From: Glutamicibacter halophytocola
GTDB taxonomy: Bacteria; Actinomycetota; Actinomycetes; Actinomycetales; Micrococcaceae
Length of the DNA stretch: 64,000 nt
Assembly: GCF_001302565.1 (NCBI RefSeq)
Contig: NZ_CP012750.1
Coordinates: forward strand, 682,001-746,000
Direction of reading: 5' to 3'
The notes beneath the pieces are model-generated. The model was not told where the DNA came from. It made no database searches and saw nothing but the letters and a program-made list of their open reading frames with translations. Position numbers and translations under genes: made by a program. Of this stretch, positions 16,666 to 23,894 are shown piece after piece (position 1 is the stretch's first letter; each line of letters begins with the position of its first letter).

Positions 16666-16709
16666 TGTGCCCCTGGCCGGAATCGAACCGACGGCCTACC
16701 CTTTAGGAG
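16666..16709 (-). repeat. att direct repeat, left copy (tRNA-Arg 3' fragment)
   Basis: 44 bases identical to 23819-23862: tRNA-Arg sequence from the first base of the anticodon loop to the discriminator base plus two further bases. After one mismatch (16710) five more bases also match. This copy lacks the 5' half of the tRNA and cannot encode one. Confidence 0.95.
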
Positions 16710-16754
16710 GGGGTCTGTAGATCCTTTATAAACATTGGCTAAGGGCTAGATGGA

Positions 16755-16771
16755 TTACGAAAAAGTTACGA
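16755..16771. repeat. 17-bp arm-type repeat, left end of element
   Basis: The sequence TTACGAAAAAGTTACGA occurs exactly here and at 23673-23689 near the other end, with a shorter related copy (AAGTTACGAAAG) at about 17979-17990 just upstream of the integrase start. The location suggests accessory binding sites of the integrase or excisionase. Confidence 0.7.
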
Positions 16772-16777
16772 AGATCT

Positions 16778-17962
16778 CTAGGCCTTACGCGCCAATGCCT
16801 CGAAAACTTTGTTGATTCGCGCGGCGCTATCGTGCTTATCAGCGTCAAAGAGTCCGGCGTAAGTATTCAAGGTAACCGTAGCGTCTTGGTGCCCGGCAAT
16901 TTCCTGCACTACTTTCACGTTAGACCCAGCACTAATGTGAAGCGATACAGCCGTGTGTCGTAAGTCGTGGAACGTGAGATTAGGAAACGGATCATCTACA
17001 GGTGCTGCGGCTATCGCCGCGCCTTTGGCCTTAGCAAACCTGCTGCCCGCTTTCGTGAAAGATCCATGACGGATGAAGCCACCATTAGGAGCATCCCACA
17101 CACGGGCCTCTGCGGGCCTATCGGCAATACGCAGGGCCAGCATATCGGCCAAAGCCTTAGGGAGCGGTACGGAGCGCTCTACGCCCGTCTTAGTGGTGCC
17201 TAGGGTAACCGTGCCCCTAACGTCGGAATACGCCCGGCAGACGCGTAGCTGTGGCTGCCTGCCTAGCTGGACATCCTGAACTTGCAGAGCAGTGACCTCA
17301 CCAAAGCGCAGGCCGCAAAGGCCTGCTGTGAGGATCATATCGGTGTAGCCGTCGCAGTTGTCGGCGAGCGCTCGGAGCTGGGCCATGGTCAGATAGACAT
17401 GCTCTTTCGCCGTCTTAGGGCGGGGGATGTAATCAGCGCGGCCCACGGCATCCTTGGCCGGGTTATATTGAATGTACTGCTTGCGGACAGCGTGATCCAT
17501 GAGTGTTCGAAATTTCTTGGCGACCTCTTGGCGCAGCGAGGGGGAGGCGGGGCCTCCGGTCACGCCCTGTAGCGTGCTAATCCAATCCTCCACATCGTTG
17601 TAATGAATGTTGCCCAATGGGGCGGTGCCCCATTTGGGCGCAATGTAGTTCTTATAGATGGCGTCGTAGCTGCTCATGGTCTTAGGGCTGGAGGGGCTAC
17701 CGCCCCTAGCTCCACCCGCTAGCAGACGCTCGCGAAACTCTGGCCACAGCATTGAAACAGTGGTGCGCTGGCCCTCTTTGAAATCAACAGTTACCCCGGC
17801 GCGCTTCTCCGCGAGACGCTTACTGTGCCAAGTCTCCGCCGCCTCTTTGGTGTCGAAGCGTTCCGTTATCCGCTTGCCCGCTTTGGTTGTGTAGTCGGCA
17901 CTCCAGCGTTTGCCGCGCTGCTCGGCTTTGGGGACTCCCTTGAATCTGTCTTTGACTGCCAT
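16778..17962 (-). CDS. int: Tyrosine-type site-specific integrase
   Basis: 394 residues: N-terminal arm-binding region, core-binding SAM-like domain at about 65-165 and a catalytic domain with the full residue set Arg219, His332, Arg335, His358 and Tyr368. It integrates and excises the element at the tRNA-Arg anticodon loop. The start at ATG 17962 (MAVKDRFKG) is preferred; an in-frame upstream ATG at 18127 would add 55 residues without family resemblance. The gene's stop is about 70 bases from the left att copy, on the strand opposite to the rest of the element. Confidence 0.95.
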   Translation of the reverse strand: MAVKDRFKGVPKAEQRGKRWSADYTTKAGKRITERFDTKEAAETWHSKRLAEKRAGVTVDFKEGQRTTVSMLWPEFRERLLAGGARGGSPSSPKTMSSYDAIYKNYIAPKWGTAPLGNIHYNDVEDWISTLQGVTGGPASPSLRQEVAKKFRTLMDHAVRKQYIQYNPAKDAVGRADYIPRPKTAKEHVYLTMAQLRALADNCDGYTDMILTAGLCGLRFGEVTALQVQDVQLGRQPQLRVCRAYSDVRGTVTLGTTKTGVERSVPLPKALADMLALRIADRPAEARVWDAPNGGFIRHGSFTKAGSRFAKAKGAAIAAAPVDDPFPNLTFHDLRHTAVSLHISAGSNVKVVQEIAGHQDATVTLNTYAGLFDADKHDSAARINKVFEALARKA

Positions 17963-18177
17963 ATTTGAAGTATCCCATAAGTTACGAAAGAGGGTAGGTA
18001 CTCGCGCCGGGGGCGCGAGTCCATGAGATAGGTGAGCTAATTGAATTGGATGATTATTAGCCAGTGGGCTTGGGGGTTCACTTATGCTTGGGTGCTGTTG
18101 GTCACAAGGCCATGCAATTTCTAACAATGCGACAGTCTTGTAGAAGTGAGGCAGGGTTTACCGCTGCCTACTACGGT

Positions 18178-18206
18178 TTGACAAAGGTTTCTGCGTCAAC
18201 TAACAA
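18178..18206 (+). promoter_or_regulatory. Putative promoter of the xis operon
   Basis: TTGACA at 18178-18183, a 17-base spacer, then TAACAA at 18201-18206. It lies in the divergent region between int and the excisionase-like gene, about 150 bases upstream of the latter. A small GGCAG...CTGCC dyad just upstream may be an operator. Confidence 0.5.
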
Positions 18207-18355
18207 TTGTCCTTGTGTTACCTGAACGGTAGCACCTGCATCAAGAAGCGGCGAGAGATAGCACTCTGTGACCCGCTGGCAATCCGAGGCCCAATGGCCC
18301 ACGGTGCCCCTCTGCTATTGGATGCGCCCCCGTTTTTGTAGGAGGAAAAACCACT

Positions 18356-18583
18356 ATGACCATAGGTCTATCTGAATCCCAACCCATGACGGCAGCTGAA
18401 GCTCGGAAGCTAAGCGGCAACACGTGGCTTAGCCGCCGCGAAGCGGCTAAGTATCTGGGCATCGGTGAACAGACGCTAGCAAACAACAAGGCTAGTGGCC
18501 CCAAGCTTTATAAGGCCTTCGGGCAGGTTCGCCATAAGCTGGCGGATCTGGATCTCTGGATGGAGCAGCGCCTTGCCAGCTAA
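18356..18583 (+). CDS. Excisionase-like helix-turn-helix protein
   Basis: 75 residues with an excisionase/MerR-type helix-turn-helix (WLSRREAAKYLGIGEQTLAN, then GPKLYKAFGQVRH). Such proteins direct excision by tyrosine integrases or act as element regulators. A strong TAGGAGG ribosome-binding sequence precedes the ATG. It is the first gene of the rightward operon and is divergent from int, which is the usual place for xis. Confidence 0.8.
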   Translation: MTIGLSESQPMTAAEARKLSGNTWLSRREAAKYLGIGEQTLANNKASGPKLYKAFGQVRHKLADLDLWMEQRLAS

Positions 18584-18806
18584 CGCGCTCAGTCTTTCCA
18601 AGCATCAGAGGCTAGCGCTCAAGGCTCTAGAGGCCCTTGTTCCACCGGGCGGAGGCCCGGTGTCGAGGCGGGATCTGAGCAGAGTCACAGGACTAAAGCA
18701 CGGGCCAGCTGGCCTAGCAATGTGCGATCTGGAATCCATGGGGCTAATCGAGATTGAGCGCTACCACATTCAAGGCATGGCTAATCGTGTGACGCTGTGC
18801 CGTTAG
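18573..18806 (+). CDS. Small winged-helix protein, coupled to xis
   Basis: 77 residues if started at TTG 18573, which has GGAG 7 bases upstream and overlaps the end of the excisionase gene by 11 bases. The sequence from about residue 8 on looks like a winged-helix domain (ALKALEALVPPGGGPVSRRD, then AMCDLESMGLIEIERYHI). A longer reading from ATG 18495 overlaps the upstream gene much more and is unlikely. The function is unknown, probably an element regulator. Confidence 0.6.
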   Translation: MPANALSLSKHQRLALKALEALVPPGGGPVSRRDLSRVTGLKHGPAGLAMCDLESMGLIEIERYHIQGMANRVTLCR

Positions 18807-19027
18807 CAGGTGACCGGCGAGCAGGTGGAGGCCTCACTCCGTGGGCCTCGCTGGCAGGGCCGGCAGAGCCTGTGCGACGGTGCGCAGGAGGGGCTAAACC
18901 CATAGTAGTCACCTCCGTTATTTTCGGTAGCCCGATCGGCGTACATCCCGCCACTTATACCGGGGATCCGTGGATCTCTCTTACTTATTCCACAGAAAAA
19001 TCCTCTACACGCAAGGAGGTGTAAATT

Positions 19028-19660
19028 ATGCCCAAAATGATCACATGCCCAGAGTGTGGGAGGCGCAAGGAACACCGCGCCAGAGGGCTGTGTCCAACGT
19101 GTTACCAACGCTGGCGAAGGGCGCAACCCGCGTGCATGACTGAGGGATGCAAGCGGGTGGCCCTTGGTCACGGACGTTGCCGCCCGCACGAAGGGTTGGC
19201 CCTGACCGAGGGTGTCACGGAGGAACGACAGCAGAAGTGGCTAACATCGTTCCGTTCCAAGATTGAGCCTAACGATAAGACCGGGTGTTGGCTATGGGTG
19301 GGGTCTAAGCACGACGGCTACGGCATGGCATGGGCGGCTAAGGGTAGTTGGTATGCCCATCGATATAGCTACGTCTGGTTTTATGGTGGCCATGATCAAG
19401 GCAAGCAGCTCGATCACATGTGCAACACGACAGACTGTGTGAGGCCCGATCATCTGTGGCCCATCACTGGCACCGATAACAAATCGCTTCAGCACCAACG
19501 TGCTCTAGCGGGGGATCTTGACTATTGGCAACACACCGTTCTCATTAGATCCAACCCGCGAATTGATAGTTGGGCGCAGGCCGAGGGCCTGCCCTATGGC
19601 AAGGCTCACCGCGTCAAGCTATCGAACCTACGCGCACAAGCGCACCTAAACAACAATTAG
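19028..19660 (+). CDS. Zinc-finger HNH endonuclease family protein
   Basis: 210 residues. The N-terminus has a zinc ribbon (CPECGRRKE, then GLCPTCYQRW) and a further Cys/His cluster (CKRVALGHGRCRPH). The central part, WLWVGSKHDGYGMAW through LDHMCNTTDCVRPDHLWPIT, matches phage-type HNH (HNH_3) nucleases with the expected His-Asn/His residues. An AAGGAGGTG ribosome-binding sequence precedes the ATG. Such genes are common in actinophages and their satellites, acting as free-standing nucleases or packaging helpers. Confidence 0.85.
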   Translation: MPKMITCPECGRRKEHRARGLCPTCYQRWRRAQPACMTEGCKRVALGHGRCRPHEGLALTEGVTEERQQKWLTSFRSKIEPNDKTGCWLWVGSKHDGYGMAWAAKGSWYAHRYSYVWFYGGHDQGKQLDHMCNTTDCVRPDHLWPITGTDNKSLQHQRALAGDLDYWQHTVLIRSNPRIDSWAQAEGLPYGKAHRVKLSNLRAQAHLNNN

Positions 19661-19675
19661 CCAGGAGGCTACAAC

Positions 19676-20458
19676 ATGACTGAACTACGCAACACCGAAG
19701 CAATCCGCAAGCACATCAATGAGCTTGAGGGGATCAAAGCTAAGCGTCAAACCGAGCTGGCCGACCACGCTGCAAAGAGTGAACGCCTAGCGCTCGCCGT
19801 GACCACCAAGGAACAGCGCGAGGGGGCCGACGAACACGGGCTAGCTCTAGCGGCTCAAAGTGCCATCAAGCAGATCAACAATCAAATGGCCAATCTACAG
19901 GCCGAGTTGGTCTATGCTCTGGCCCGCGACCTCAAGGCCGAAGCGGTGGAGGCCGTCAAGGGAAAGCCTGACTTTGAGACACGGGCTAAGGCTATCGCGG
20001 CTAAGGCATTTGCCGAGATGGAAGAGCTCAAGGCTGAGGATGACGCTTACAACGAGGCTATTGATTCAACGGCCCGAAAGGCTCAGCAGTTTGAGAAGAC
20101 CCACGACATCGCGCCTCTGGCTGCTGCTGGCCTAGCTGGGCAGGCTGATCACCTAGGTGCACGCGTCTCCATCGACGGTGCTACGCACCGGGCTATGTGG
20201 GCAGGTGAAACTGCCAAGATTCTTAGCCGCTATATCGACAAGGTGGACTTGGAACTCGCCGTGAAAGCCAGCGATGCTAAGTACGAGGAGCAGATGCGGC
20301 AAAGGATCGCGGAGGCTGCGCAGGTGGCGGCAGAAGCTCCGGCAGTGTCGATGTGGGCGCAGCCCACAGAGGCCGATCTGGAGGCGGCAAAGGCAGAGCG
20401 TGAGCGTGAGGAGCGAGAGATTATTACCCGCTCCGCTATGAGCCTCGTAGCGGCTTAG
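19676..20458 (+). CDS. Coiled-coil protein of the element, unknown function
   Basis: 260 residues, Ala/Glu/Lys rich. Long helical segments (residues 1-75, 95-140 and the C-terminal AAKAEREREEREIITR) look coiled-coil. No enzymatic motif or recognised family. It follows the HNH gene by 15 bases with an AGGAGG ribosome-binding sequence and is certainly translated with it. Codon use (many GCTAAG and CTA triplets) matches the element backbone and not the cargo gene downstream. Confidence 0.7.
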   Translation: MTELRNTEAIRKHINELEGIKAKRQTELADHAAKSERLALAVTTKEQREGADEHGLALAAQSAIKQINNQMANLQAELVYALARDLKAEAVEAVKGKPDFETRAKAIAAKAFAEMEELKAEDDAYNEAIDSTARKAQQFEKTHDIAPLAAAGLAGQADHLGARVSIDGATHRAMWAGETAKILSRYIDKVDLELAVKASDAKYEEQMRQRIAEAAQVAAEAPAVSMWAQPTEADLEAAKAEREREEREIITRSAMSLVAA

Positions 20459-20753
20459 GGCGGTAGGCGGCGGTGGCCGAAGGGGGCGGGGAAATCCGCC
20501 CCCAAAGTCACTCCGCGCATTGCCTGCAACTTCGCCGCGAACAAAGGGATGCATAGGTGTTTTATCTCCTAGAAAACCCTTGAATCCGTCCGTATGAAAA
20601 ATGGGTAACACCCTCCGGGCTGCCTTTGCGCGCAAATGGGTGCCCCCCGGTAGGGTGCTGGGTAATTAGCTGAAATGTACTCGGAACTTGTATTGAGTTG
20701 CCGTAAGTTCTAGTTAGTACACGAATATCAGTGCCTAGTTAGTAAGGAACACA
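20459..20753. other. Non-coding stretch upstream of the cargo gene
   Basis: 295 bases without a convincing ORF. The first part is G-rich on the plus strand. The second part holds two exact copies of CTAGTTAGTA (20710-20719 and 20735-20744, 25 bases apart) and a loose dyad between GTACTCGGAACTT and AAGTTCTAGTTAGTAC, which may form the operator region of the DUF262 gene. No origin or RNA could be identified. Confidence 0.5.
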
Positions 20754-22538
20754 TTGGTTGAAGCAACGGAATTAACCGTCCAGGGTCAGAGCTTACAGTC
20801 GCTCTATACGCAATACGCAAAAGACACTTTTCTCGTCAATCGACGGTATCAGCGGAAACTTGTTTGGGCTGTTGATGAGAAAGAACGTTTGATTGACTCG
20901 ATTATTGCCCAGCTTCCAATCCCGCTCATTCTATTGGCTGAGCATCAGGAGGATCGGTCTTCTTCCTTTGAGATTATCGACGGTCTTCAGCGGCTTAATG
21001 CGATATTCGCATTCATTGAAAATGAGTTCTCATATGAGGGGGCCTACTTCGATCTTGAGTCCTTGGCAGATACAAAGTATTTACGTGACTCAAATCTTCT
21101 CGTCCAGAAGACGCCAACCTTGCCACGCAGCACCTGCTTGGCAATAGTGAATTATCAACTGCCGATATCCATATATAGGTCGGCGACCGAATCGTCTGTG
21201 GATGAAGTATTTCGACGTATCAACTCTTCTGGGCGTAAGTTGAGTCTTCAGGAAATCCGTCAAGCGGGTGTTACCTCGAGCTTGGCTAACTTGGTACGTC
21301 GCCTAAGCGCCGGAGTAAGGGGGGATGCCACTCTCACGGACATACTTCCATTGAAGGAAATGCCGAAAATTAGTATCACTAGCCGTAACTTACCTTATGG
21401 AATCGCAGATGATTCCATATTTTGGGTCAAGAATGGAATTCTCGATAAAGATTCTGTGAGGGAATCTAGGGATGAGGAGCTAGTTCTAGATCTGCTCCTG
21501 GATATTCTTATTCGCCCGTTGCCTGTCACAGGAAGTGTTTATCGAAATGCTGCATACGGAAGAGACGTAAGCTCTGCCACTTCGTTGCCTGCTGTGGAAT
21601 CAAGGATTAAGTCGGTGGGTATCGAGACTATCTCTAATAGGTTCGTTGAAACACTTGATATTATTCGAAAAGTCGTTGATTTGTCCGGTTCAAGTCTGGC
21701 CACTTGGATGATCACTCAGTCTAATCCGCGAGGAATCCCACGCTATTTTCACGCACTATTCATCGCGCTACATGACATTCAATTTCAGAAAAACATGGTA
21801 GTCGATGATTTTCCAGGCCTGACAGACGCTTTGCACGGATTTTGGGACAGAGAATTAACTATAACGGGAGGCGGAGGGAACTGGAGCGGTAAGCGTAAAG
21901 AGGGGCTGAATAGCTCGGTAATAGCGCAGCTGGAAAAGTTCTTTAAGCGCAAGGACGATGCTGTATCTGTGAGAAAGCAAGAACTCTCGTTGCAGTTTGA
22001 AATGGAAATGAACATGGCGCTTACGGAGAGCGCCATGTTCGAACTGAAACAGGGCTTTACTCGGATGGATGCGACAGGTGCCCTAGATGAAACGTCGTTT
22101 GCAAAGGTTTTGAGAACGGCCAGTGCAATGGCCAACCGAAAACCTGGTGTAACGGGCTACATATTTTTCGGTGTAGCCGATCAAGCTGCTGATGCGCAAC
22201 GCATTGAACAGTTGTACGGTATCTCGGGGCACAAGTTGAACCAATTTATCGTCACCGGAACCCAGCATGAAATGGACCTCCTAGATAGATCCGTCGACGA
22301 TCACTATCGATGGTTGGTTCAGCAAATCCGAAACTCTGACTTGGAGCAGGATTTCGCTAACTCGCTGGCTGAAAGCCTTCAGCCGTTTCACTACAGGGAT
22401 TACTTGCTATGGTCCATGAACCCAGTAGCGATGGATCACCCCACGTCATTTGGAGGTGACTTCTATTATCGACGTGGTAATTCAACGGAGATTGCTAAGG
22501 GACCGGAAGTCGTGGAGATATTCAAACGGTTCAGTTAA
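20754..22538 (+). CDS. DUF262-AlbA_2 (Schlafen-type) fusion, candidate defence protein
   Basis: 594 residues. Residues 25-170 are a DUF262 (ParB/Srx-like) domain: YQRK at 32-35, DGLQR at 76-80 (the DGQQR-type motif linked to NTP use in SspE and GmrS) and INSSGRKL at 156-163. The middle is helical. From about residue 424 an AlbA_2 (Schlafen) domain follows: ESAMFELK at 425-432, GYIFFGVAD at 468-476, and a terminal YYRRGNSTE. DUF262 proteins restrict modified phage DNA; Schlafen AlbA domains cleave RNA or bind ATP/DNA. The TTG start has AAGGAA upstream. A line counted by hand (21421-21480) is 43% G+C against 67% for pcrA (24781-24840), so it is foreign cargo. Confidence 0.8.
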   Translation: MVEATELTVQGQSLQSLYTQYAKDTFLVNRRYQRKLVWAVDEKERLIDSIIAQLPIPLILLAEHQEDRSSSFEIIDGLQRLNAIFAFIENEFSYEGAYFDLESLADTKYLRDSNLLVQKTPTLPRSTCLAIVNYQLPISIYRSATESSVDEVFRRINSSGRKLSLQEIRQAGVTSSLANLVRRLSAGVRGDATLTDILPLKEMPKISITSRNLPYGIADDSIFWVKNGILDKDSVRESRDEELVLDLLLDILIRPLPVTGSVYRNAAYGRDVSSATSLPAVESRIKSVGIETISNRFVETLDIIRKVVDLSGSSLATWMITQSNPRGIPRYFHALFIALHDIQFQKNMVVDDFPGLTDALHGFWDRELTITGGGGNWSGKRKEGLNSSVIAQLEKFFKRKDDAVSVRKQELSLQFEMEMNMALTESAMFELKQGFTRMDATGALDETSFAKVLRTASAMANRKPGVTGYIFFGVADQAADAQRIEQLYGISGHKLNQFIVTGTQHEMDLLDRSVDDHYRWLVQQIRNSDLEQDFANSLAESLQPFHYRDYLLWSMNPVAMDHPTSFGGDFYYRRGNSTEIAKGPEVVEIFKRFS

Positions 22539-22603
22539 ATGTCCAGGTGGGCTGCTTAGATCCTTCTTTCCAGAAAGATATAAGAACTAACAAATCCGAT
22601 CGG

Positions 22604-22717
22604 TTGCGTTATGTTTCTAGCGTTATGGCTGGCCGCACGGAAACAAGCGGATCTGACATAACGCAACACCATAACGAAACTGTGTGTTACGTTTGATGTA
22701 AGCATCATCGGTTTTGT
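22604..22717. promoter_or_regulatory. Probable res site of the serine recombinase
   Basis: The 180 bases between the cargo gene and the recombinase contain repeated CGTTATG motifs: TTGCGTTATG at 22604-22613 with its inverse CATAACGCAA at 22657-22666, GCGTTATGG at 22620-22628 with inverse CCATAACG at 22669-22676, and a further TTGTTATGG at about 22714. Clustered inverted sites next to a resolvase gene are typical of res/crossover regions and also of resolvase autoregulation. Confidence 0.65.
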
Positions 22718-22739
22718 TATGGATGAGGAGATCCAACTT

Positions 22740-23333
22740 TTGACTTCCAAGCTCATTGGATATGCACGTGTCTCTACTGGCTCACAGGATACGGAACGGC
22801 AGCAGGCCGACCTGCTGGCGGCTGGCGTACTGCCTTCGGATCTATTCGTGGACAACGGCGTTAGCGGTGCTAAGGCTAGCCGCCCCGCATTGGATCAAGC
22901 GCGGGCCATGCTGCGCAGCGGCGACACTTTGGTGATTACTACGCTTGACCGGCTAGGTCGGTCGACCGAGGCCATGCTCGCGCTGGCTACTGAGCTTCAG
23001 GATAGCGCTGTCAATCTGCGCGTCTTGAATCTAGGGGGCGGCGACGTTGACACGTCTAGCCCCATGGGCAAGATGATGTTTACCGTTATGGCAGCGCTGG
23101 CACAGATGGAACTAGAGGTGAAGCGTGAACGCACTCGCGACAGTGTGGCTAAGCGTCGCGCTAAGGGTGGCGACCTGGGCGGTCGCCGTGTGAAGCTGAC
23201 AGATGATCAGGTGCACGGCGCTATCGCTGAGATCGCTACAGGCGTGAGTGCTGCGGCTGCGGCTGAGGCACGCGGCGTAAGCTACCAAACGCTATGGCGC
23301 AGGGCTAAGGCGCTAGGTGTGGATCTGCGCTAG
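22740..23333 (+). CDS. Serine recombinase (resolvase/invertase family)
   Basis: 197 residues from TTG 22740, which has GAGGAG upstream at workable spacing; an in-frame ATG at 22719 has none. Resolvase domain: catalytic Ser12 in YARVSTGSQD, the arginine-bearing TTLDRLGRS, and the E-helix region MAALAQMELEVKRERT. The C-terminal helix-turn-helix is AAAAEARGVSYQTLWRR. It is a small resolvase/invertase, not a large serine integrase. Its codon style matches int and xis, so it is part of the element backbone. It likely resolves multimers or inverts a segment at the adjacent repeats. Confidence 0.92.
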   Translation: MTSKLIGYARVSTGSQDTERQQADLLAAGVLPSDLFVDNGVSGAKASRPALDQARAMLRSGDTLVITTLDRLGRSTEAMLALATELQDSAVNLRVLNLGGGDVDTSSPMGKMMFTVMAALAQMELEVKRERTRDSVAKRRAKGGDLGGRRVKLTDDQVHGAIAEIATGVSAAAAAEARGVSYQTLWRRAKALGVDLR

Positions 23334-23375
23334 ACAGTAAGAGGGGCCCGGCTAACGCCGGGCCCCTCTTACTGT
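23334..23375. terminator. Bidirectional terminator after the serine recombinase
   Basis: A perfect 19-bp stem with a 4-base loop (arms 23334-23352 and 23357-23375) directly after the recombinase stop codon. Confidence 0.9.
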
Positions 23376-23383
23376 ATCTGGGG

Positions 23384-23590
23384 TTAGTTGACTGGCGGTG
23401 TCCAGTCCAGCGGTGTTAGCTTTTTGCGTGGCTCTGGTGGCAACTGATGGGCTGCTGCGGTGGCTGCTGCTATTAGGATCTCGTCGTCAGTTGCTTCGGT
23501 GTGCATGGTGCTGGCGTATAGGGTGCCGTCGATTAGTGCGATGGCTAGCTCTGGCGTATCTAACAACAGTTCAAAGGACTCATTAGTCAT
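23384..23590 (-). CDS. Small hypothetical protein of the element
   Basis: 68 residues, acidic N-terminal half (FELLLDTPELAIALIDGTLY) and a Pro-rich end. No recognised family. The composition is protein-like and it faces the recombinase with a terminator between them, but no good ribosome-binding sequence precedes the ATG, so it may be spurious or start elsewhere. A short perfect hairpin (23615-23635) lies just upstream. Confidence 0.4.
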   Translation of the reverse strand: MTNESFELLLDTPELAIALIDGTLYASTMHTEATDDEILIAAATAAAHQLPPEPRKKLTPLDWTPPVN

Positions 23591-23672
23591 GGAGGTTGAC
23601 CCTAGTGTTAGTGCCAGCCCGGCGAGGCCGGGCTGATTAGTGCGAACATTGCCAGCTTGGCCACTCGGGAAC

Positions 23673-23689
23673 TTACGAAAAAGTTACGA
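23673..23689. repeat. 17-bp arm-type repeat, right end of element
   Basis: Exact copy of the 17 bases at 16755-16771, in the same orientation, about 130 bases inside the right att copy. Confidence 0.7.
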
Positions 23690-23770
23690 TAAGGCTTTCA
23701 AAAGCCGGTAAGACACGGGTAAGCACACGACTCAAAAACAATCAAGCGACAAACCATCTTAGGTACAGCA

Positions 23771-23811
23771 AAGGCCCTGCATCCCTTATATTTACTGGGA
23801 TGCAGGGCCTT
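23771..23811. terminator. Terminator supplied by the element for tRNA-Arg
   Basis: A perfect 15-bp stem (arms 23771-23785 and 23797-23811) located 10 bases beyond the 3' end of the restored tRNA, in the element. It takes the place of the original terminator now at 16625-16661. Confidence 0.8.
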
Positions 23812-23818
23812 TTCTTGC

Positions 23819-23862
23819 TGTGCCCCTGGCCGGAATCGAACCGACGGCCTACCCTTTAGGAG
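23819..23862 (-). repeat. att direct repeat, right copy (within the intact tRNA-Arg)
   Basis: 44 bases identical to 16666-16709. The match begins exactly at the 5' base of the anticodon loop, so strand exchange occurred in or 3' of the loop and the element supplied the 3' part of the present tRNA. Confidence 0.95.
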
Positions 23863-23894
23863 AGGGTCGCTCTATCCTACTGAGCTACAGAGGC
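23821..23894 (-). tRNA. tRNA-Arg (anticodon CCT)
   Basis: The minus strand folds as a cloverleaf: acceptor GCCTCTG/CAGGGGC with one G-T pair, D-stem GCTC/GAGC, anticodon stem ACCCT/AGGGT with loop CTCCTAA (anticodon CCT, reads AGG), and T-arm GTCGG-TTCGATT-CCGGC. The discriminator is A; CCA is not encoded. The gene hosts the attachment site of the element and remains intact. Confidence 0.95.

What the first reader, a model, noticed from the sequence alone, without database searches (positions are those of the whole stretch)
20754..22538. DUF262 fused to a Schlafen AlbA_2 domain as island cargo: candidate single-gene defence system
Seen: an N-terminal ParB/Srx-like DUF262 with QR and DGLQR motifs, a C-terminal AlbA_2 domain (ESAMFELK, GYIFFGVAD, YYRRGNSTE), and much lower G+C than its neighbours and than the element's own backbone. 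Known: DUF262 is the nucleotide-using or nuclease part of SspE, GmrSD and BrxU; Schlafen AlbA domains occur in RNA-cleaving and regulatory proteins. Inferred: the fusion could couple sensing of modified or foreign DNA to an RNA-directed or NTP-dependent effector. It sits in the cargo slot of a tRNA-integrated element, where such genes collect. I know of no described defence system with this exact pairing, but cannot search.
Basis: partly seen in the sequence, partly recalled or inferred. Interest (0 to 1): 0.82.

Follow-up and report, generated by a model that had tools for sequence, protein, structure and literature searches.

The report
Mobile GmrS–Schlafen fusion, probable phage defence
A single gene carried on a small DNA element inserted in a tRNA gene joins a sensor-type domain of restriction enzymes to an RNA-cutting-type Schlafen domain; its relatives ride on phages and plasmids, some in a known phage-defence slot, so it is probably a little-studied one-gene antiviral defence.

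Summary
Window 20754-22538 (+) encodes 594 aa with GmrSD_N (DUF262) at 17-171 and SLFN_AlbA_2 at 429-580. An AlphaFold2 model (pLDDT 85) matches BrxU/ParB with its N part and AlbA_2/Schlafen folds with its C part, the latter with modest scores. The gene is low-GC cargo of a 7,153-bp element (16666-23818) in tRNA-Arg(CCT), bounded by 44-nt repeats; 17 of 17 other genomes of the genus lack the insertion. It belongs to a coherent ~590-aa family (PHROG 26759, no function), rare in Actinomycetota, known from proviral contigs and plasmids. In 10 of 32 viral-contig loci (5 sequence groups) it lies between gpA and gpQ, the described anti-phage hotspot of P2-like phages. GmrS motifs are kept in 30 of 30 members; the Schlafen carboxylate triad (E425, E430, D476) is acidic in 30 of 30, and D476E appears in three clades, each on a D430 background. 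Best reading: a one-protein anti-phage system, a GmrS-like nucleotide-driven sensor gating a Schlafen-type RNase. Defence is likely; trigger and RNA substrate are inferred; nothing was assayed. New variant of a known kind. A 2025 preprint on bacterial Schlafens could not be read.

The parts
20754..22538 (+). DUF262-Schlafen fusion gene (594 aa)
   Evidence: Pfam; PHROG 26759 matched at 5-593, E 1.2e-82
20802..21266 (+). GmrSD_N / DUF262 (ParB/Srx-like) domain, aa 17-171
   Evidence: BrxU 7p9k is the best PDB fold match of the whole model, E 2.5e-4
20850..20855 (+). QR motif (aa 33-34), 30 of 30 in A2
20979..20993 (+). DG[LM]QR motif (aa 76-80); D76, G77, Q79, R80 30 of 30
21210..21224 (+). FxxxN motif (FRRIN, aa 153-157), F and N 30 of 30
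   Evidence: motif name from PMC12137116
21321..21977 (+). mostly helical middle region, aa 190-408, no Pfam match in the window protein
21987..22535 (+). C-terminal Schlafen AlbA_2-type domain, about aa 412-594 (Pfam 429-580)
   Evidence: (pLDDT 93.4)
22026..22028 (+). E425 codon, first acidic residue of the Schlafen-type triad
   Evidence: E in 30 of 30
22041..22043 (+). E430 codon, second acidic residue
   Evidence: E 24, D 6 of 30
22179..22181 (+). D476 codon, third acidic residue
   Evidence: D 26, E 4 of 30
16666..16709 (.). attachment-site copy at the left end of the element (44 nt identical to the tRNA-Arg 3' end)
23819..23862 (.). attachment-site copy at the right end, overlapping tRNA-Arg
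23820..23894 (-). tRNA-Arg (CCT), integration target
16778..18127 (-). tyrosine integrase of the element
   Evidence: PF00589 E 4e-14; phrog_1 E 4.5e-57
18495..18806 (+). small ORF (103 aa), only a sub-threshold LexA-type DNA-binding match
   Evidence: E 0.1; no match at 1e-4
19028..19660 (+). HNH-type endonuclease ORF
   Evidence: phrog_3593 E 6e-23
19676..20458 (+). 260-aa ORF of unknown function; no match at E <= 0.001 in 196 other genomes searched
22719..23333 (+). small serine recombinase (invertase/resolvase type)
   Evidence: PF00239 E 1e-38; phrog_125

Best explanation
A stand-alone anti-phage protein carried as cargo by mobile elements. The N-terminal GmrS/DUF262 module acts as the nucleotide-driven sensor or switch, as in BrxU and SspE; the helical middle passes the signal on; the C-terminal Schlafen-type domain, with its carboxylate triad E425/E430/D476, is the effector, a metal-dependent endoribonuclease whose cleavage of tRNA or another structured RNA stops translation and so phage growth. 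In effect it is a GmrSD-family architecture in which the HNH DNA nuclease (DUF1524) is replaced by a Schlafen RNase. Shown here: domain order, predicted folds, conserved motifs, mobility, and occupation of a described defence hotspot by relatives. Inferred: defence activity, NTP use, the trigger (modified phage DNA or another cue), RNase activity and its substrate.
For: Both domains above Pfam cut-offs and across the family (GmrSD_N 30 of 30, AlbA_2 28 of 30). AlphaFold2: whole protein pLDDT 84.9, pTM 0.81; C domain alone pLDDT 93.4, pTM 0.88. PDB fold search of the whole model: BrxU first (E 2.5e-4), then Noc/ParB, DIP2311 and Schlafens. C domain alone: ranks 1-16 are DIP2311, a RecG-related N domain, Schlafens 14, 13, 12, 11, 5, and three rows of two entries titled only 'DNA/RNA binding protein' (that DIP2311 and 2kyy are AlbA_2 proteins is recalled). 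QR, DGxQR, FxxxN motifs 30 of 30; triad positions acidic 30 of 30, with the spacing E-5-E-46-D against E205-5-E210-38-D248 of rat SLFN13, where mutating any of the three diminished cleavage (PMC5862951, passages). E476 is seen only with D430 (4 of 4 in A2) and on the tree in three clades, each beside a D430/D476 relative (one of the three clades has support 94/87 only), as expected if both carboxylates share one site. Location: 10 of 32 full-span viral-contig loci, forming 5 groups at 85% DNA identity, lie between gpA and gpQ, a hotspot where anti-phage systems were validated (PMC9122126, passages). The gene has lower G+C than the rest of its locus in 39 of 39 loci and is lower than every same-length window of its locus in 26 of 40.
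Against: No assay of any kind. The acidic triad belongs to the general AlbA_2 motif as I recall it, and many AlbA_2 proteins are thought to be DNA-binding regulators (recalled); no control set of non-nuclease AlbA_2 proteins was compared. The link to Schlafens themselves is modest: SLFN11 E 0.037 with the C-domain profile; fold matches to SLFNs E 0.028 or worse with query TM-scores 0.33-0.40, DIP2311 0.46-0.51. IMG/VR and PLSDB hold mobile DNA by design, so their counts do not show enrichment. None of 50,697 phage records holds a copy covering 80% of the query. Of 8 actinobacterial loci, 4 (L021, L022, L142, L143) show no mobile gene among the ORFs scanned. Defence-gene matches beside it are few, mostly weak candidates. 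In 14 of 40 loci other stretches are as low in G+C.
Confidence: 0.5

Rival explanations
1. A DNA-directed defence protein: the DUF262 part recognises modified or foreign DNA and nicks it or uses NTPs, and the AlbA_2 domain only binds nucleic acid or serves oligomerisation.
For: DUF262 is part of DNA-cutting type IV systems (PMC10952713, passages). RefSeq calls the detached E. coli C half 'RNA-binding domain-containing protein' in some records. The best C-domain fold hit is DIP2311, of which no nuclease activity is known to me.
Against: No other nuclease domain is found by Pfam; triad positions are acidic in 30 of 30 with D430-linked D476E changes, which mere binding would not obviously require.
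Confidence: 0.2
2. An inter-element weapon or stability gene: it acts against competing plasmids or prophages, or as a plasmid addiction factor, rather than against lytic phages.
For: Most E. coli places are on plasmids (862 of 918), beside pemIK in the three IncF records looked at. PFLU4242, a DUF262+DUF1524 protein, is implicated in plasmid fitness cost (PMC8544851, one passage).
Against: No antitoxin partner is evident: the gene stands alone in the window, in P2 prophages and on the Azotobacter plasmid. The gpA-gpQ slot is a phage-defence slot.
Confidence: 0.2
3. A regulatory or housekeeping gene of the host with no role in conflict.
For: The nearest relatives (57-60%) are single chromosomal genes; for L021 and L022 no integrase was found among the ORFs scanned.
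Against: Absent with its element from 17 of 17 congeners, found in 4 of 396 genomes of the order sample, lower in G+C than the rest of its locus in 39 of 39 loci, present on viral contigs and plasmids of unrelated hosts.
Confidence: 0.06

Closest known systems
GmrSD family type IV restriction enzymes (GmrSD, BrxU, SspE, GrwA)
   Same: N-terminal DUF262 with QR, DGxQR, FxxxN; one polypeptide; helical middle; C-terminal effector. Best PDB fold match is BrxU.
   Different: No DUF1524/HNH domain; the effector position holds a Schlafen AlbA_2 domain. Motif reads DG[LM]QR, not DGQQR.
NsnA and PD-T4-2_A, DUF262 proteins of other anti-phage systems (that NsnA is the Menshen protein is recalled)
   Same: Best PADLOC matches of the N domain, 30 of 30 members. 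Menshen, Dazbog and PD-T4-2 have DUF262 without DUF1524 according to PMC10952713 (passages).
   Different: In the window protein the models match only aa 12-186 and 16-184; window neighbours are recombinases, an HNH ORF and unknown ORFs.
Schlafen RNases (SLFN11-14; bacterial Schlafens of a 2025 preprint)
   Same: Fold class, acidic triad and roughly its spacing.
   Different: Fused behind DUF262; one AlbA_2 unit of about 185 aa rather than the two-lobed Schlafen N' domain (N-lobe and C-lobe, PMC5862951). The preprint (doi 10.1101/2025.07.24.666596, seen only as a reference in PMC12839542) could not be read.
Defence cargo of the gpA-gpQ hotspot of P2-like phages (Rousset et al. 2022, PMC9122126, passages)
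   Same: 10 of 32 full-span viral-contig loci sit in this slot.
   Different: DUF262 does not occur in the main text of that paper (count 0 in the listing); its supplementary tables were not open to me.
CoCoNuTs, type IV restriction systems predicted to target RNA (PMC11090510, title and start of abstract in the listing)
   Same: Idea of a type IV-like system that turns to RNA.
   Different: A branch of McrBC systems, not DUF262-based as far as the abstract start says; no homology tested.

Membership tests
GmrSD / BrxU / SspE type IV restriction family | N-terminal DUF262 with QR, DGxQR and FxxxN motifs | tested here: met
GmrSD / BrxU / SspE type IV restriction family | C-terminal DUF1524 His-Me/HNH nuclease | tested here: not met
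   No such Pfam match in 30 members scanned at E <= 0.01; the C domain folds as AlbA_2
GmrSD / BrxU / SspE type IV restriction family | NTP-dependent cleavage of modified DNA | not testable with these tools
   needs biochemistry
Schlafen / AlbA_2 superfamily | AlbA_2 domain by profile | tested here: met
   PF04326 above cut-off; 28 of 30 members at E <= 0.01
Schlafen / AlbA_2 superfamily | AlbA_2 fold | tested here: met
   query TM-score 0.46-0.51 to DIP2311, 0.33-0.40 to Schlafens
Schlafen RNase | Three acidic active-site residues, E-x4-E and a later D | tested here: met
   acidic at all three in 30 of 30; paper residues
Schlafen RNase | tRNA/rRNA cleavage | not testable with these tools
   needs biochemistry
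Menshen or PD-T4-2 | DUF262 gene with its partner gene(s) | tested here: inconclusive
   N domain matches NsnA and PD-T4-2_A in 30 of 30. Window neighbours were given to Pfam and PHROGs, not to PADLOC
Anti-phage system | Recurrent location in mobile or defence loci | tested here: met
   exceptions
Anti-phage system | Protection against phage | not tested
   experiment

The most novel reading that the evidence does not exclude
A type IV-like restriction protein that answers foreign or modified DNA by cutting RNA: a GmrS-type nucleotide-switch sensor directly fused to a Schlafen tRNase, spread as a one-gene cassette by P2-like prophages, plasmids and tRNA-integrated elements across Actinomycetota and Pseudomonadota, with the same effector fold as animal antiviral Schlafens.
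Probability: 0.33. Interest if true: 0.82.

Novelty: new variant of a known kind. Interest (0 to 1): 0.62.

Why it matters
If true, it joins two immune traditions in one protein: the GmrSD sensor of bacterial type IV restriction and the tRNA-cutting Schlafen effector known from animal antiviral immunity. It would show that the sensor module can be wired to an RNA effector, and give a function to a PHROG family that has none and to a gene present, mostly interrupted, on many E. coli plasmids. It is one gene with predicted catalytic residues, so the idea can be tested directly.

Tried and rejected
Looked for and not found: other copies in the same genome (one copy); copies covering 80% of the query in phage records (0 of 50,697; three partial DUF262 matches in Vibrio phages); the element's 260-aa ORF in relatives (0 of 196 others). 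The integrase has relatives in 3 of 196 others at E <= 1e-60; their cargo was not followed. Rejected: a frameshift or assembly fusion of two genes, because the same two-domain length recurs in independent genomes (most full-span members 587-600 aa). Rejected: chance coincidence of two weak profile matches. Promoter- and terminator-like sites were no more than in the shuffles. Calling it a GmrSD member fails on DUF1524. The HNH ORF 19028-19660 as a missing nuclease partner was considered; no HNH gene is listed beside the gene on the Azotobacter plasmid or directly beside it in the P2 prophages, but this was not searched for systematically. An unbiased rate outside Actinomycetota was not obtained.

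Counts and drops: 'full-span' viral loci are those whose tblastn pieces run from query residue <= 12 to >= 540: 32 of 58 viral loci. Three of the 32 (L078, L080, L083) have broken frames and L075 a 541-aa frame; all stay in the slot count, and L078, L080, L083 were left out of the G+C counts. The 10 hotspot loci are 5 groups at 85% DNA identity (L060, L062, L063, L080, L082 at 93.5% or more; L055 with L076; L057; L067; L068). A2 holds 30 chosen members; left out were the duplicates L051, L063, L082, the odd-start L055, the partial or broken L065, L075, L077, L078, L080, L083, L084, and the plasmid rows; A2 still holds the close pairs L060/L062 and L050/L081. Nine rows including plasmid copies (A1) were checked apart. 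One search compares 39 loci with the rest of each locus; one search compares 40 loci with same-length windows and prints the 14 where other windows are as low. Genome samples overlap and include the window's genome. Paper lists showed 20 of 40 and 10 of 17 papers.

Full report
Observation. The ORF at 20754-22538 (+), 594 aa from a TTG start, is real; the stretch before the start holds an AAGGA box (sequence printed). Pfam finds GmrSD_N (DUF262) at 17-171, E 2.2e-22, and SLFN_AlbA_2 at 429-580, E 1.3e-6, both above the curated cut-offs. G+C is 47.0%, against 56.7-60.0% for the five other ORFs of the element that I named, 56.1% for the left flank and 58.2% for the right flank.

Element. tRNA-Arg(CCT) lies at 23820-23894 (-). 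Its 3' end is repeated exactly over 44 nt at 16666-16709 and 23819-23862, which bounds an element of 7,153 bp with a tyrosine integrase (16778-18127, -), an HNH ORF, ORFs of unknown function, the fusion gene and a small serine recombinase. In 17 of 17 other genomes of the genus the left and right flanks lie next to each other: in 11 the alignments overlap at the tRNA end, in 6 they stop within about 250 nt of each other. The insertion is therefore an accessory element. The genome holds one copy of the gene.

Family. Close relatives: Microbacterium L021 60% and L022 58%, Actinoplanes L023 57%, G363 51%. Viral contigs gave 58 loci, of which 32 span the protein, at 27-43% identity in the best segment. 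PLSDB has 145 records where one place covers at least 80% of the query; those opened are an Azotobacter plasmid, a Citrobacter IncC plasmid and E. coli IncF plasmids, besides a chromosome filed there as a plasmid. PHROG 26759, unknown function, matches at aa 5-593 with E 1.2e-82. Most full-span members are 587-600 aa. In Actinomycetota it is rare: full-length in 2 of 197 relatives, 2 of 396 genomes of the phylum sample and 4 of 396 of the order sample; these samples overlap and include the window's own genome.

Folds. AlphaFold2 on 30 members gives pLDDT 84.9 and pTM 0.81. A PDB search with the whole model ranks BrxU first (E 2.5e-4, the only row at E <= 0.001), then Noc/ParB domains, DIP2311 and Schlafens 13, 5, 12, 14, 11. 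The C domain alone (pLDDT 93.4, pTM 0.88) has in ranks 1-16 DIP2311, a RecG-related N domain, Schlafens 14, 13, 12, 11 and 5, and three rows of two entries titled only 'DNA/RNA binding protein'; only three DIP2311 rows reach E <= 0.001. Query TM-scores are 0.46-0.51 for DIP2311 and 0.33-0.40 for Schlafens, E 0.028 or worse for the latter, so the superfamily is clear and the special tie to Schlafens is modest. A sequence profile of the C domain reaches pig SLFN11 at E 0.037 (not significant alone; an unrelated photoreceptor scores as well) and there pairs the E-x4-E-x-K motif and the GVxD strand end.

Motifs. In 30 members Q33, R34, D76, G77, Q79, R80, F153 and N157 never vary; these are the QR, DGQQR and FxxxN motifs of the GmrSD family as named in PMC12137116 (passages), where R81A of GrwA abolished activity. 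E425 is E in 30 of 30, E430 is E in 24 and D in 6, D476 is D in 26 and E in 4; all three are acidic in 30 of 30. Spacing is 5 and 46 residues; rat SLFN13 has E205, E210, D248 (5 and 38), and mutating any of the three diminished its activity (PMC5862951, passages). E476 occurs only with D430: L050, L081, L052, L057. On the tree these fall in three clades, next to L024 (D/D), L027 (D/D) and L053 (D/D) respectively, with support 100/98, 100/100 and 94/87, so D476E seems to have followed E430D three times. That is what two carboxylates of one metal site would do. This is an inference from few events.

Contexts. In 10 of the 32 viral loci (L055, L057, L060, L062, L063, L067, L068, L076, L080, L082) the gene lies between gpA and the portal gene gpQ, within about 65 nt of gpQ in nine and about 0.5 kb in L057 (Pfam checks of the portal in L055, L057, L060, L068 and of gpA in L055 and L057; the rest by tblastn). 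They form 5 groups at 85% DNA identity. This region is the anti-phage hotspot of P2-like phages described in PMC9122126 (passages). L052 and three E. coli chromosomal copies (L108, L109, L110; 3 of the 56 chromosomal places) sit instead between baseplate gene V and the gene-S-like morphogenesis gene, on the other strand from these late genes. Other viral loci have an integrase (L079), a large serine recombinase (L056), a lambda-type terminase (L054) or a ParA-type gene (L059) beside it. G363 carries the gene in a second tRNA-Arg-bounded element: 109-nt repeats 14,254 bp apart, tRNA-Arg(CCG), an integrase and a GntR regulator. L023 has an integrase about 5 kb downstream, and G157 has serine-recombinase-like DNA with stop codons close by. 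For L021, L022, L142 and L143 I found no mobile gene among the ORFs given to the searches, which speaks against a strictly mobile life. PADLOC candidate matches lie beside L021 (E 1.2e-7), L023 (1.7e-12) and L143 (8.1e-14), and a D12 DNA methyltransferase beside L070; 15 other neighbours of the 19 given (one of them twice examined by Pfam) had none.

Composition. The gene is lower in G+C than the rest of its locus in 39 of 39 loci, mean 12 points, near-identical loci included. As a control, it is lower than every same-length window of its locus in 26 of 40 loci; in 14 some other windows are as low, up to 29% of them.

Transfer and loss. The tree puts the actinobacterial G157 and G633 copies (together 100/99) inside a clade otherwise of viral-contig copies (100/100), and the E. 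coli IncF copy next to the P2-prophage copies. In E. coli 824 of 5,426 genomes hold homologous DNA, but only 133 a place covering at least 80%. In 45 of the 60 rows sampled there the match ends at nt 1284 of 1770 or begins at nt 1276, that is at the start of the AlbA_2 domain, a 9-nt overlap. In the one such record opened an IS1 remnant and resistance genes follow. L109 has a separate IS1 interruption. Intact copies exist; I describe the broken ones only.

Mechanism and novelty. The simplest reading is a one-protein defence in which a GmrS-like sensor controls a Schlafen-type RNase. DUF262 proteins without DUF1524 are already known in defence (Menshen, Dazbog, PD-T4-2; PMC10952713, passages), and Schlafens are discussed as back-up effectors beside BREX (PMC12839542, passages), so both halves have defence precedents. 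I found the fusion in no paper: 'DUF262 + AlbA_2' gave 0 papers, 'GmrSD + Schlafen' one paper, which treats them as separate proteins in the passages I saw, and the lists shown hold none that describes it in title or abstract start. PMC3710099 mentions DUF262 and Schlafen in separate fusions with HEPN domains (passages). The library holds open-licence papers only and no preprints; the bacterial Schlafen preprint could not be read and may cover it. Defence role: about 0.7 by my judgement; RNase effector given defence: about 0.7; together the best explanation gets 0.5.

Noticed in passing
E. coli plasmids (locus L111): In 45 of 60 sampled E. coli rows the homologue is cut at the start of its AlbA_2 domain (ends at nt 1284 or starts at nt 1276 of 1770); in the record opened an IS1 remnant and resistance genes lie beside it. 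It looks like one old insertion that spread.
   Followed up: partly
L109 12001-14553; viral loci L078, L080, L083: Further broken copies in prophages and viral contigs (IS1 in L109, broken frames in the others), hinting that the gene is repeatedly lost.
   Followed up: partly
window 22603-22667: 12-nt perfect inverted repeat (41 nt apart) just upstream of the serine recombinase gene, a possible recombination or operator site.
   Followed up: no
window 23334-23375: 19-nt perfect hairpin with a 4-nt loop directly after the serine recombinase gene.
   Followed up: no
L108, L110, L052: A second accessory-gene slot in P2-like prophages, between baseplate gene V and the gene-S-like gene, carries this family in E. 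coli; it is different from the gpA-gpQ hotspot.
   Followed up: partly
window 19676-20458: 260-aa ORF of the element with no match in 196 other related genomes, no PHROG match and no significant Pfam match.
   Followed up: partly
   Followed up: yes
Vibrio phage records PQ189375, PQ189381, PQ189377: The only matches among 50,697 phage records are partial DUF262 matches in three Vibrio phages, in genes annotated as hypothetical.
   Followed up: no
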